Virus record (IMG/VR): IMGVR_UViG_3300042261_002391
Span: 24,469-88,468 of that record
DNA from: a virus
Direction: 5' to 3' (one strand)
DNA: 64,000 nucleotides
This document shows, piece by piece, positions 1,375 to 49,130 of this stretch. Under the pieces are notes generated by a model. That model was not told the origin of the DNA. It did no database searches and was given only the letters and a program-made list of their open reading frames with translations. The first letter of the stretch is position 1. The number at the start of each line of letters is the position of its first letter. Position numbers and translations under genes: made by a program.

Positions 1375-1414
1375 CAAATATACACATTTTTTAAATAAAA
1401 ATACACTCACCAAA

Positions 1415-1464
1415 ATATAAGGCAGGTGTGGATTACTGCACCCTAGTATTACCCAGCCTCATAT
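1415..1464 (-). ncRNA. Candidate small structured RNA or leader
   Basis: About 50 nt directly downstream of the promoter at 1470-1499 can close as ATAT-x-AGGC with GCCT-x-ATAT, enclosing a GGTG/CACC hairpin. The fold starts within 1 nt of the transcription start predicted from the promoter spacing. There is no open frame, and another promoter follows at once. It may be a small RNA or an upstream leader of the DUF932 gene. Confidence 0.35.
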
Positions 1465-1469
1465 AATTA

Positions 1470-1499
1470 TTATACGTTTCTTAATTAAAAAAGGTTACA
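1470..1499 (-). promoter_or_regulatory. ECF-type promoter (no gene directly downstream)
   Basis: TGTAACC, 16 nt, CGTATAA on the minus strand. Only the candidate RNA at 1415-1464 lies between it and the next promoter. Confidence 0.75.
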
Positions 1500-2544: not shown

Positions 2545-2874
2545 TTATTCGTCTTCTTCCATCTCATCTGGTTCTGGGTCTGGATAATCAATTTCAATTA
2601 CTCCGTCTTCAACACCTTGCCAGAAATTTTGGCTATTACCTAAAGTACCTTTAGTACCCTCCTGAAGTCTGTTCCTGCTGGGAACTATATTCCCGTAATA
2701 ATCCTGAGTATCTTCTTCAGGCAAAAAGCACGCACCAGATTCTAATAAACTCATCGCCTTCCTACCCATTGAACCTTCGAACTTCCACACCTCACCAGAT
2801 TCAATAAGATTCTGCATCTGGGTCATCCCGTGTTTGTTCTGAAGTTCTGTTATTCTTTCAAGTGTCATCTCCAT
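2545..2874 (-). CDS. Conserved hypothetical phage protein, acidic tail
   Basis: 109 residues. The N-terminal half (ITELQNKHGMTQMQNLIESG, then VWKFEGSMGRKAM) looks like a conserved small family of phages and mobile elements with no known function. The C-terminus is very acidic. It is unusual in having a structured, cloverleaf-like 5' leader (2904-2988) directly after its promoter. ATG codons lie at 2874 and two codons later. Confidence 0.8.
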   Translation of the reverse strand: MEMTLERITELQNKHGMTQMQNLIESGEVWKFEGSMGRKAMSLLESGACFLPEEDTQDYYGNIVPSRNRLQEGTKGTLGNSQNFWQGVEDGVIEIDYPDPEPDEMEEDE

Positions 2875-2903
2875 TGCCGTCAGTTTTATTGGTTTGTATT
2901 GAT

Positions 2904-2988
2904 AGCATTGGTACTGACCACCAGTCCAGTACTTTAGGGCTTCCCTTATTGCGAAGGGACGTTGCTGGATTTCACAACTTTCAATGCT
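2904..2988 (-). ncRNA. Cloverleaf-like RNA leader (candidate cis-regulatory RNA)
   Basis: On the minus strand this 85-nt leader has a perfect 7-bp closing stem (AGCATTG with CAATGCT) around three arms: GTTG/CAAC, TCCCTT/AAGGGA with loop CGCAAT, and GTACTG/CAGTAC stacked directly on the closing stem. It starts 7 nt after the -10 element, the same spacing at which tRNA-Cys starts at 4727. Its loops do not match a canonical tRNA (no T-loop). It lies about 30 nt before the ATG at 2874, so it may control translation. Confidence 0.5.
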
Positions 2989-2994
2989 AATTTC

Positions 2995-3023
2995 TTATAC
3001 GTTTGAGCTGGGAAAAGGTTACA
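2995..3023 (-). promoter_or_regulatory. ECF-type promoter
   Basis: TGTAACC, 15 nt, CGTATAA on the minus strand; its spacer lacks the usual TTAATTAA. It precedes the cloverleaf leader. Confidence 0.75.
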
Positions 3024-3595: not shown

Positions 3596-3708
3596 TAGCT
3601 ACATTTGTAGCAGTGTTTATTGTGACGCACATAGTGATTCTCGAATAGACGAGAAATAATGGAGAATATCTCACTCACTAAGATATGTTATTTATAGCAT
3701 AATCACAC
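3596..3708 (+). ncRNA. Candidate plus-strand structured RNA
   Basis: Gene-free stretch with three short perfect hairpins in a row: GCTACA/TGTAGC at 3598-3611, TTCTCG/CGAGAA near 3638-3656 and ATATCT/AGATAT near 3665-3686. It follows a plus-strand late-type box. The only frame is 12 codons long. Low confidence. Confidence 0.25.
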
Positions 3709-4540: not shown

Positions 4541-4568
4541 AAAAGGCGTACATTGCTGCACGCCTTTT
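4541..4568. terminator. Bidirectional terminator
   Basis: AAAAGGCGT / ACGCCTTTT stem with a 10-nt loop, flanked by A and T runs, downstream of tRNA-Cys and the promoter at 4615-4643. Confidence 0.8.
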
Positions 4569-4614
4569 CATTAAACAATGTCACAAATAAAAAGAACAAA
4601 ACAAAATCGATATC

Positions 4615-4643
4615 TTATACGTTTAATCTTTAAAAAGGTTACA
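4615..4643 (-). promoter_or_regulatory. ECF-type promoter without a gene
   Basis: TGTAACC, 15 nt, CGTATAA on the minus strand, just downstream of tRNA-Cys. The terminator at 4541-4568 follows about 40 nt later, so it would give only a short RNA of about 70 nt. Confidence 0.7.
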
Positions 4644-4652
4644 ATTATTATG

Positions 4653-4727
4653 AGCATGGAGTGGGATTCGAACCCACGACTTTACAGTTTTGCAGACTGT
4701 TGCCTTTGACCACTCGACCATCCATGC
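4653..4727 (-). tRNA. tRNA-Cys(GCA)
   Basis: 7-bp acceptor GCATGGA/TCCATGC, anticodon stem ACAGT/ACTGT with loop CTGCAAA, T-arm GTGGG/CCCAC, U73. CCA is not encoded. The mature 5' end is exactly 7 nt after the -10 box of the promoter at 4734-4762, so the transcript may need no 5' processing. A near-identical copy lies at 35852-35926. Confidence 0.93.
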
Positions 4728-5353: not shown

Positions 5354-5944
5354 TTAAATTGCATACTCATTTTTCAGGCTTTCAAGTTCTGATTGAAGCA
5401 TTTCCCGACACCGGAATACCATTCCTTTAACTGTGCCTAATGGAACTTCGCAAAGTTCAGCTATTTCGTTATATTCCATTTCCTTAATGAAAAACAGTTC
5501 AGCAATACGCTGATATTTTGGTTTCAAACGACTGATAGCAGAATTAATCGTATTCATTGATTCATTGCTTTCAATCGTTTCCTGAACATCGTTACTTGCT
5601 TCAAATTGAAACAGTTCGTTTCCATCTTCGTCAACATAACCGTCAACGTTGATATTCTTACCAAACTTTGCATTTTTGGTTCTCCAATAGTCAATTACCC
5701 TATTGTTTGCAATGCTGTAAAGCCATGTAGTGAAAGCATTTTTGCTATCATATTGGCTGATAAAACGCTGAACTTTCATAAAGGTATCAGCAGTTAAATC
5801 TTCGGCTGTCATTTCGTCTTTCACCTTACCATTGATGAAGAACTTAACCTGATTGTAAAACTCATTGTAAACTCCGGTAATGTTTCCGGTTGAAACAGCT
5901 AACTGAATTGCTTGTTCTTTTGTCTTTGTCATTGTAGTTGCCAT
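5354..5944 (-). CDS. ECF-type RNA polymerase sigma factor
   Basis: 196 residues with only sigma regions 2 and 4, as in ECF (group 4) sigma factors. Region 2 spans about residues 20-95 (AEDLTADTFMKVQRF, then TWLYSIANNRVIDYW). Region 4 spans about 135-185, with the helix-turn-helix YNEIAELCEVPLGTVKGMVF. A linker rich in Asp/Glu joins them. ECF factors typically read a -35 with AAC and a -10 with CGT, which is what the TGTAACC/CGTATAA sites in this window show, so this is the likely reader (inference). Its own promoter (5988-6019) is host-type, so it could be made first. No anti-sigma gene is obvious next to it. Confidence 0.9.
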   Translation of the reverse strand: MATTMTKTKEQAIQLAVSTGNITGVYNEFYNQVKFFINGKVKDEMTAEDLTADTFMKVQRFISQYDSKNAFTTWLYSIANNRVIDYWRTKNAKFGKNINVDGYVDEDGNELFQFEASNDVQETIESNESMNTINSAISRLKPKYQRIAELFFIKEMEYNEIAELCEVPLGTVKGMVFRCREMLQSELESLKNEYAI

Positions 5945-6782: not shown

Positions 6783-8330
6783 ATGGCAATTATTGTTAAA
6801 AAAGCAAATCAGCAAAATGTAGCTATTAGCGAACCAATTAAACCCGCTTTCATCCCTAGTGTTTATCAACAGCGTGTTTATGATTTCATTACCTCCGGTA
6901 ATGGGAATGCTGTGATTGATGCTGTTGCTGGCTCAGGCAAAAGTACGACAATTGTTAATGCTTTGCGCCTTATTCCCTCTGATAAATCAGTTTTATTCTT
7001 AGCTTTTAACAAATCAATTGTTGATGAATTGAAGTTGAAAATCAGTAACTCAAAAATTGATATTCAAACCTTGCATTCACTTGGTATGCAAACAATTAAA
7101 GATACTTTAAGGTTTGTTAATGTTGACGCTTCAAAGTATAAAATCTATGTTAAAGACTCCCTGAAATACGGCTATATCAAACCAACCGTAAAACTCGAAG
7201 AAGAAGAAATGGGCGAATATACCCAAAATATCAATAAGTTAGTTGATTTGATTCGTGTTTATTTGGCTTCCGATATCAATTTAGTTTATGATATCGCTGA
7301 TAAGTATCAGATTAATATTATTGATAATGAAGCTGATGTTGCTTTAAATGCTGTTAATTGGGGTATCAGCAATACCAAAAGTATTGATTTTACCGATATG
7401 ATTTTTCTGCCGAACGTGAAAAACTACCGGACTAAAAAATATGATTTCGTGTTTATTGATGAGTGTCAAGACCTGAACACAGCGCAAAGGGAATTATTTC
7501 TGCAATGCCTGAATGATAACGGTCGTTTTATTGCCGTAGGTGACCCAAGACAAGCGATTTATGGCTTTGCCGGAGCAGATGTAGAAAGCTTCAAAATATT
7601 GGCTAATTTGCCTAATACTATCAATTTGCCTTTATCAATCTCCTATCGTTGTGACTCTGATATCATTAACCTTGCCAAAACTATTGTTCCTCAAATTGAA
7701 TCTAGACCGAATGCACTTGCCGGAACAGTTGACCGGAATGCGCATTTAATTGATATTCAGGACGGTGACATGATTCTTTGCCGGAATACCGCTCCTTTAG
7801 TTGACCTTTGCATGAAATTTATTGCTGACAATACCAAAGCCTATGTAAAAGGCAAGGATATAGGCGCAAACCTAATCAATATTATCAAACGTACCAATAA
7901 AAAGCTAATGAAAGACGTTTTTGAACGTTTAAACAAAGAATTATATAAGATTGGCTGCAAAGTATGTAACAAGCAAAAATGCGATTTTAAGGAAGCTAAA
8001 AGCGATTCTCTTTATACTTCTATGAAAGATAAGATTGAAGCAATTGAAGTGCTTTCAAATAGCCTTGAAACAGCAAACGAAGTAATTGAAAGAATTGAAT
8101 TAATTTTCAAGGATGAAGATAGAACCGGAATTTGTTTATCTACTATTCACAAAGCTAAAGGATTGGAAAGTAATAATGTTTACATAATCTGCGAAGAGTT
8201 ATTCTTTCCTAAACGTGCTATGAAAGTAGCTTGGCAAGCTGAACAGGAATATAACATCGTTTATGTAGCTTATACACGTGCAAAGCATAAACTAGGATTT
8301 GTTATCGACTACGTTTATAAACGTGATTAA
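6783..8330 (+). CDS. UvrD/Dda-like superfamily 1 DNA helicase
   Basis: 515 residues with the ordered SF1 motifs: Walker A AVAGSGKST near residue 50, Walker B FVFIDECQD near 220, motif III GDPRQAIYGFAGAD near 250, motif IV SYRCDSDI, and C-terminal TIHKAKGLESNNVY and YVAYTRAKHK (motifs V-VI). It should unwind DNA during replication or recombination, acting 3'-5' if UvrD-like. A host-type promoter upstream and terminator downstream make it a one-gene early unit beside the candidate origin. Confidence 0.93.
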   Translation: MAIIVKKANQQNVAISEPIKPAFIPSVYQQRVYDFITSGNGNAVIDAVAGSGKSTTIVNALRLIPSDKSVLFLAFNKSIVDELKLKISNSKIDIQTLHSLGMQTIKDTLRFVNVDASKYKIYVKDSLKYGYIKPTVKLEEEEMGEYTQNINKLVDLIRVYLASDINLVYDIADKYQINIIDNEADVALNAVNWGISNTKSIDFTDMIFLPNVKNYRTKKYDFVFIDECQDLNTAQRELFLQCLNDNGRFIAVGDPRQAIYGFAGADVESFKILANLPNTINLPLSISYRCDSDIINLAKTIVPQIESRPNALAGTVDRNAHLIDIQDGDMILCRNTAPLVDLCMKFIADNTKAYVKGKDIGANLINIIKRTNKKLMKDVFERLNKELYKIGCKVCNKQKCDFKEAKSDSLYTSMKDKIEAIEVLSNSLETANEVIERIELIFKDEDRTGICLSTIHKAKGLESNNVYIICEELFFPKRAMKVAWQAEQEYNIVYVAYTRAKHKLGFVIDYVYKRD

Positions 8331-14842: not shown

Positions 14843-14916
14843 AGCAATATAGCATAATTGGTAAATGTGCCTGCCAGTGTTGTAGGAGATTAAGATTCGA
14901 GTTCTTTTTATTGTTG
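14843..14916 (+). tRNA. Degenerate tRNA-like element 2 (GTG in anticodon position)
   Basis: Acceptor AGCAATA/TATTGTT, D-arm GCAT/ATGT, anticodon loop CAGTGTT (GTG, A at 33), and a weak T-arm around TTCGAGT with an extra T before the acceptor. Likely non-functional or unusual. Confidence 0.5.
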
Positions 14917-14989
14917 GGTTGAAAGCATATTAAGTACTGTATGCGGTTCAACAAAACATCGAAAATAAGTGTACATATGTTTCGATGTT

Positions 14990-25951: not shown

Positions 25952-25972
25952 GCAATTTCAAATAAATTTTTG

Positions 25973-26046
25973 AGATTCTAGTGGGATTCGAACCCACGAT
26001 TTTCAAGTTTTAGAGACCTGTGCAATAACCACTCTGCCATAGAACC
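25973..26046 (-). tRNA. tRNA-Sup(CTA), amber suppressor
   Basis: Acceptor GGTTCTA/TAGAATC, D-arm GCAG/TTGC, anticodon stem CAGGT/ACTTG with a canonical loop CTCTAAA (U33, anticodon CTA, A37), T-arm GTGGG/CCCAC, U73. CTA pairs with the codon UAG. The D-arm resembles that of the TTG tRNA at 62913, hinting at Gln, but the amino acid is not proven. Confidence 0.9.
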
Positions 26047-29227: not shown

Positions 29228-29303
29228 AACGTCTGGAGGGATTCGAACCCTCATGTATCCAATTACACTTCTCTACGTTCGTAGCGTAGCGTGATACAGA
29301 CGC
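29228..29303 (-). tRNA. Aberrant tRNA-like element, Arg(ACG)-like, no normal D-arm
   Basis: Acceptor GCGTCTG/CAGACGT and T-arm GAGGG/CCCTC are intact. Only 7 nt (TATCACG) separate the acceptor from a perfect arm CTACG-CTACGAA-CGTAG (ACG). A GTGTA/TACAT arm follows, before the T-arm. If that later arm is the anticodon arm, TGG (Pro) could be read instead. Confidence 0.6.
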
Positions 29304-49038: not shown

Positions 49039-49130
49039 TGGAACATGTAGGATTCGAACCTACTTACTGCGACCAATACGACTATTTAGCGATGCAGGTT
49101 GGATTTACAGTCCAGTGCCGTTAATGTTCC
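49039..49130 (-). tRNA. Aberrant tRNA-like element, Tyr(GTA)-like, no D-arm
   Basis: Acceptor GGAACAT/ATGTTCC and T-arm GTAGG/CCTAC are perfect, anticodon arm TGGA-CTGTAAA-TCCA. Only 8 nt separate acceptor and anticodon arm, so there is no D-arm, while the variable region is about 35 nt (CTGC...GCAG). Same layout as the element at 29228. Confidence 0.6.

What the first reader, a model, noticed from the sequence alone, without database searches (positions are those of the whole stretch)
2904..2988. Cloverleaf-shaped RNA leader starting exactly at the predicted transcription start
A 7-bp perfect closing stem encloses three arms, the last stacked without linker, giving a tRNA-like outline of 85 nt. 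It begins 7 nt after the -10 box, the same offset as mature tRNA-Cys. Its loops are not those of a tRNA. A tRNA-shaped mRNA leader could bind a tRNA-processing enzyme, a synthetase or the downstream protein.
Basis: partly seen in the sequence, partly recalled or inferred. Interest (0 to 1): 0.7.

Follow-up and report, generated by a model that had tools for sequence, protein, structure and literature searches.

The report
Cloverleaf RNA leader of phage gene
A small gene of an uncultured phage carries a stable cloverleaf-shaped RNA, not a transfer RNA, wedged between its predicted transcription start and its ordinary leader; it is probably a folded mRNA head piece found so far in this one phage, and its function is untested.

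Summary
The RNA from 2988 down to 2904 folds into a 7-bp closed, three-armed cloverleaf. Only 16 of 5000 shuffles give three arms with such a closing stem. It starts at the same offset from the promoter as tRNA-Cys. It lies between the -10 box and a leader tail that matches the phage's ordinary leaders. It is not a tRNA: Rfam finds nothing, and its similarity to 335 tRNAs is at shuffle level.

No relative keeps it. Two phages with the same promoter type and a homologous gene have plain short leaders, so covariation could not be tested. The outline alone is weak evidence: 11 of 206 such promoters are followed by some three-armed fold. In longer transcripts the closing stem competes with pairing to the start codon.

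Best reading: a lineage-specific structured 5'-UTR module that buries the 5' end and keeps the ordinary leader free. tRNA-like processing, a switch and chance remain open.

Side result: related phages carry undescribed tRNA-like elements just upstream of genes, including 41-44 nt mini-tRNAs (72 of 92 pattern matches with paired acceptor; 5.7 expected).

The parts
2992..3022 (-). promoter: GTAACCTTTT - 10 nt - ACGTATAAG(AA), ECF-sigma-like by eye
   Evidence: 12 promoter-like sites in the window share it; exact ACGTATAAGAA with up to 1 mismatch found 15 times, 1.97 expected. The ECF resemblance is recalled knowledge.
2904..2988 (-). cloverleaf element, 85 nt
   Evidence: MFE fold; 16 of 5000 shuffles have three arms with a closing stem of 7 bp or more; G+C 0.471 against 0.312 for the window
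2982..2988 (-). closing stem, 5' strand AGCAUUG
2961..2978 (-). arm A, 5 bp, loop GAAAUCCA
2942..2959 (-). arm B, 6 bp, loop CGCAAU
2911..2932 (-). arm C, 6 bp, 10-nt loop, stacked on the closing stem
2904..2910 (-). closing stem, 3' strand CAAUGCU; can pair instead with the start region GGCAAUGG
2875..2903 (-). ordinary leader tail AATACAAACCAATAAA..., matching leaders of sister genes
2545..2874 (-). downstream gene, 109 aa, DUF7417-like / phrog_3908, function unknown
   Evidence: phrogs E 2.9e-07; Pfam below cut-off, E 4e-4
4652..4727 (-). tRNA-Cys whose mature 5' end has the same offset from the same promoter type
5354..5944 (-). phage-encoded sigma factor (region 2 and region 4_2), possible reader of these promoters
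   Evidence: Pfam, phrogs; the link to the promoters is inference

Best explanation
The element is a lineage-specific structured 5'-UTR module. Shown from sequence: an 85-nt three-armed fold lies between the -10 box and an otherwise ordinary A-rich leader. Inferred: transcription starts at or within a few nucleotides of its 5' strand, so the 5' end is buried in the 7-8 bp stem. The cloverleaf then acts as a compact head that shields the mRNA from 5'-end-dependent decay. While folded it leaves the normal leader and start codon unpaired, as in the sister genes. If its closing stem opens, the freed 3' strand can pair with the start region, so folding may also favour translation.
For: Fold and rarity. 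Lowest energy of the 11 promoter-proximal three-arm folds among 206 promoters. G+C 0.471 in a 0.312 window. The tail after the element (AATACAAACCAATAAA) matches leaders that elsewhere follow the -10 box directly, so the element sits in a standard leader. No further promoter of this type is visible between element and gene, so it should be part of the mRNA. Mean unpairedness of the start region is 0.66 with the cloverleaf formed, 0.41 in the full ensemble and 0.66 without the element.
Against: No homologue of the element was found in 1.7 Mb of related loci, in phages by BLASTN or by an exact 18-mer of arm A, so there is no covariation. Homologous genes with the same promoter type do without it. 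The cloverleaf is outweighed by other folds in transcripts of 129-209 nt. No RNA data exist. The 5'-decay rule is recalled from E. coli and may not hold in this unknown host.
Confidence: 0.42

Rival explanations
1. tRNA-mimic processing module. The stacked closing stem and arm C imitate the acceptor/T-arm helix; RNase P and/or RNase Z cuts at its edges and releases an mRNA that starts with the ordinary leader.
For: The 3' edge of the element coincides with the start of the ordinary leader. Its 5' edge has the offset of a mature tRNA. Related phages place tRNA-like elements about 15-25 nt before start codons, including before homologues of this gene, against 29 nt here.
Against: No T-loop sequence and no detectable tRNA similarity. 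The element lies at the start of the transcript, where a 5' cut would free almost nothing. The window holds no mini-tRNA by descriptor.
Confidence: 0.2
2. Translation switch. The closing stem's 3' strand chooses between the cloverleaf and the start codon region, under control of a ligand, a protein or the speed of transcription.
For: Mutually exclusive folds of similar energy (-30.2 with the cloverleaf forced against -31.9 free, 165 nt); closing-stem probability changes with transcript length.
Against: Mean unpairedness of the start region, 0.41, is within the range of sister leaders, 0.40-0.69. No Rfam riboswitch match. No conservation.
Confidence: 0.13
3. Non-functional insertion whose cloverleaf fold is chance or a relic of a decayed tRNA gene.
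For: Absent from all relatives seen. Three-arm folds follow 11 of 206 promoters. The element was picked out of a 64-kb reading.
Against: Perfect 7-8 bp stem, 16 of 5000 shuffles, high G+C, exact placement behind the promoter. Tail and gene intact. No tRNA similarity above shuffles (16 of 100 reach it).
Confidence: 0.25

Closest known systems
Phage tRNA genes, for example the tRNA-Cys at 4652-4727 in this window
   Same: Promoter type, offset from the promoter, cloverleaf topology with the last arm stacked on the closing stem
   Different: No D-loop or T-loop signature, 6-nt middle loop, no tRNA score, followed directly by an mRNA
5'-terminal stem-loop mRNA stabilisers such as the E. coli ompA leader (recalled)
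   Same: Structured, base-paired 5' end of an mRNA
   Different: Three-armed cloverleaf rather than simple hairpins; no half-life data; host unknown
tRNA-mimicking leaders such as the E. coli thrS operator (recalled)
   Same: tRNA-like fold in an mRNA leader
   Different: The downstream gene is a small phage protein of unknown function, not a synthetase; no anticodon mimicry is evident
Mini-tRNA and tRNA-like elements of related phages found here
   Same: tRNA-like RNA shortly before a start codon, in gaps before homologues of the same gene; 12-13 bp stacked helix
   Different: They keep the GTTCRANNC T-loop and the mini forms are 41-44 nt; the element has neither feature
Stable RNAs C and D of phage T4 (recalled)
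   Same: Phage-coded tRNA-like small RNAs of unknown role
   Different: They lie in a tRNA cluster and are processed as separate RNAs; no sequence comparison was made

Membership tests
tRNA (Rfam RF00005) | Covariance-model match | tested here: not met
   No tRNA hit at E<=10 in a 221-base search; not among the 38 tRNA hits of the window or the ARAGORN calls
tRNA (Rfam RF00005) | T-loop GTTCRANNC and D-loop GG | tested here: not met
   Arm C loop GACUGGUGGU, arm A loop GAAAUCCA
tRNA (Rfam RF00005) | Cloverleaf topology with stacked 3' arm | tested here: met
Phage mini-tRNA class described here | 41-44 nt, acceptor plus ATGGTT linker plus T arm | tested here: not met
   Descriptor scan including the window finds no such element in it
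5'-UTR stabiliser | Base-paired 5' end of an mRNA | tested here: inconclusive
   Stem predicted; start site not mapped
5'-UTR stabiliser | Longer mRNA half-life | not testable with these tools
   Needs RNA experiments
Riboswitch or other known RNA family (Rfam 15) | Match to a curated model | tested here: not met
   Only a chance Togavirus hit, 8.5 bits against a gathering score of 120
Conserved structured leader | Covariation in homologous leaders | tested here: inconclusive
   The two homologues with the same promoter type lack the element; no homologue of the element found

The most novel reading that the evidence does not exclude
The cloverleaf is an extreme member of an undescribed phage habit: tRNA-like RNAs, from 41-44 nt mini-tRNAs to full cloverleaves with aberrant anticodon arms, set just before start codons as punctuation, so that tRNA enzymes or the folded RNA itself define mRNA 5' ends.
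Probability: 0.12. Interest if true: 0.8.

Novelty: new variant of a known kind. Interest (0 to 1): 0.42.

Why it matters
If the leader works, it is a tRNA-shaped mRNA head in a phage, placed by the same promoter geometry as a real tRNA, and a compact test case for how phages protect or process 5' ends. The search around it uncovered a larger matter: a recurrent class of mini-tRNA elements in phage intergenic gaps that ARAGORN did not call in the loci checked and Rfam did not match in the one locus tested. It would make 'tRNA punctuation' in phages directly testable.

Tried and rejected
Rejected: plus-strand reading (one search gives an elongated hairpin). A tRNA missed by the finders. Known RNA families. 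Match to T4-like thymidylate synthase genes (28 records, best E 0.03): it covers the promoter as well as the first part of the element, on the opposite strand of a coding gene, so I take it as chance. An exact arm-A match in L270: no promoter or cloverleaf visible around it. Sequence homologues of the element in 1.7 Mb: none below E 3.9. Homologues of the downstream protein: 1 pattern match and no relative from the single sequence; 2 of 28 records; 23 loci with a three-sequence alignment. Of those 23 only L146 and L152 have the promoter type, so the other 21 say little about this leader. L151's tRNA-like hit (6 of 7 acceptor pairs, 4-bp T stem) is weak and counted as doubtful.

Literature: I saw search listings only and read no paper. 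Searches were. Searches returned no paper, and none of the listed titles describes phage mini-tRNAs or a cloverleaf phage leader; the library misses most subscription journals and bioRxiv.

Full report
What is there. The 85-nt element lies on the minus strand, 2988 down to 2904, in an 88,468-base virus record. The plus strand does not fold this way. With one more base on each side the closing stem has 8 bp.

Is it more than chance? Of 5000 dinucleotide shuffles, 202 have any three-arm MFE, 16 have one with a closing stem of 7 bp or more, and 35 have one of 5 bp or more starting in the first four bases. In the window scan (15,976 folds of 100 nt, 215 three-arm places including tRNAs) the folds deeper than -28.7 kcal/mol all lie on tRNA genes, on their complements or across neighbouring tRNA genes. 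The outline alone is not rare, however: of 206 promoters of this type in the loci then held, 11 are followed by a three-arm fold with a closing stem of 6 bp or more. Three of these are tRNA-type genes (L027, L056, L090), and the element is the most stable of the 11. The element has 47.1% G+C in a 31.2% window.

The promoter and the insertion. Twelve minus-strand sites in the window share GTAACCTTTT (one has GTAACCATTT), a spacer and a CGTATAA-like -10 box. The spacing and the CGTAT box resemble ECF-sigma promoters (recalled), and the phage encodes a sigma factor with regions 2 and 4_2 at 5354-5944; that link is inference. Ordinary genes of this set start within about 60 nt of the box with leaders such as GAAGTACAAACCAATAAA. 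Among 148 promoters in the window and related loci only 25 are more than 60 nt from an ORF of 35 aa or longer, or have none in reach. By my reading 7 of the 25 precede tRNAs or tRNA-like RNAs and 5 precede another small RNA family. In the element's gene the same tail, AATACAAACCAATAAA, comes after the cloverleaf. The element therefore looks wedged between the box and a standard leader. Its first base and that of the mature tRNA-Cys are both 5 nt after the TATAAG hexamer, that is 7 nt after CGTATA. The only other tRNA found behind such a promoter, tRNA-Pyl in L056, has an offset of 10. Transcription start is predicted, not mapped.

Not a tRNA. Rfam finds no tRNA in the stretch even at E 10. The best alignment score against 335 distinct tRNAs, 48, is reached by 16 of 100 shuffled elements, while the first 60 real tRNAs taken score at least 63.5 against another tRNA. 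The loops have no T-loop or D-loop signature. By eye, loop A (UCCA) and loop C (CUGGUGGU) could touch through CCA/UGG, as an elbow would; this was not tested.

Fold within the mRNA. Up to the start codon the closing stem has probability about 0.99. It falls to 0.34 at 129 nt, 0.24 at 139 nt, 0.05 at 169 nt and 0.34 at 209 nt. In the competing fold the stem's 3' strand CCAAUGCU pairs with the start region GGCAAUGG. The start region is unpaired 0.66 on average with the cloverleaf forced, 0.41 in the free ensemble and 0.66 without the element; seven sister leaders range from 0.40 to 0.69. Co-transcriptional folding would form the cloverleaf first. This is compatible with a switch but does not show one.

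Relatives. The syntenic relative L018 (62% identity in the DUF932 protein, 63% in the helicase) and contig IMGVR_UViG_3300048838_001248 (L097/L146) carry homologues of the downstream gene (47 and 48% identity in the alignment) behind the same promoter type with plain leaders. The closest protein relatives by sequence, L143 (64%) and L144 (60%), have no such promoter or element in the 320 bases shown. The element had no sequence relative in 1.7 Mb. The tools may withhold the nearest relatives of this record, so absence is not proven for close kin.

tRNA-like RNAs in the same gene neighbourhoods. L018 has a 74-nt cloverleaf with a canonical T arm and a 6-nt anticodon loop directly behind the homologous gene; ARAGORN does not call it. 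In the 23 homologue loci, 8 contain tRNA-like elements by descriptor (7 without the doubtful L151), and ARAGORN calls none in those 8. In L149 five copies of a 43-44 nt element stand in the gaps, one of them 19 nt before the homologue of this gene; L158 has a similar one 21 nt before its homologue.

The mini-tRNA class. The mini element is a 7-bp acceptor helix, a 10-nt linker with ATGGTT, and a T arm with GTTCGATTC. Six scrambled T-loop motifs gave 0 or 1 short hit each, against 8 for the real motif. A pattern that demands no pairing found 104 stretches in viral contigs. Of 92 distinct matches in all 104 loci, 80 have a T stem of 5 bp or more, 72 also have 6 or 7 acceptor pairs, and 46 have 7 of 7; swapping strands between elements gives 5.7 and 1.4. 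In a 24-sequence alignment 12 of 13 pairs show changes on both sides; those sequences were chosen by a descriptor that demands pairing, so one search is the fair test. A related, stricter pattern found 5 stretches in the genome collection. Rfam has no match in L149 at E 1.

How it bears on the finding. These elements make tRNA-like RNA before genes a real habit of related phages. The window's element differs from them: no T-loop motif, full cloverleaf size, a position at the predicted start of the transcript. I therefore do not file it with them. I keep the structured-leader reading as most likely (0.42), with chance or relic (0.25), processing (0.20) and switch (0.13) as rivals.

Noticed in passing
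L149:130-173, 433-475, 1082-1125, 1667-1709, 2551-2593; also L154, L155, L158, L163, L183, L187, L195, L197, L219: Mini-tRNA elements, 41-44 nt: acceptor helix, ATGGTT linker and T arm only, in phage intergenic gaps, often about 15-35 nt before a start codon. 72 of 92 pattern matches have a T stem of 5 bp or more and at least 6 acceptor pairs, 5.7 expected. Rfam has no match in L149; ARAGORN calls none of them in the loci checked.
   Followed up: partly
L114:2316 and L058:2088; L027:8015 and L052:10951; L070:2172 and L127:14771; L114:2115 and L121:14033: Extended tRNA-like RNAs with normal acceptor and T arm but a 50-60 nt insert (about 25 nt in the last pair) replacing the anticodon region; each pair looks homologous by eye.
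   Followed up: partly
window 1400-1498 (-); L018 about 6957-7010 and 14873-14930; L090 about 13711: Small RNA behind the same promoter with a shared core like AGGGTGCAGTAATCCACACCTGCC; next to the DUF932 gene in the window and L018. Possibly also L097 near 2700, where the resemblance is weak.
   Followed up: partly
window about 3623-3655 (+); L088 about 7750: Conserved non-coding stretch GTGACGCACATAGTGATTCTCGAA.AGACGAGAA seen in both by eye.
   Followed up: no
window 4560-4642 (-): Promoter directly behind tRNA-Cys drives a short transcript with a strong terminator-like hairpin and no ORF of 35 aa before it.
   Followed up: no
window 25972-26046 (-); L056:2488-2562: CTA-anticodon tRNA (called tRNA-Pyl) in this phage and a relative, possibly an amber suppressor.
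   Followed up: no
window 29228-29303 and 49039-49130 (-): tRNA matches by Rfam that ARAGORN does not call, possibly aberrant tRNAs.
   Followed up: no
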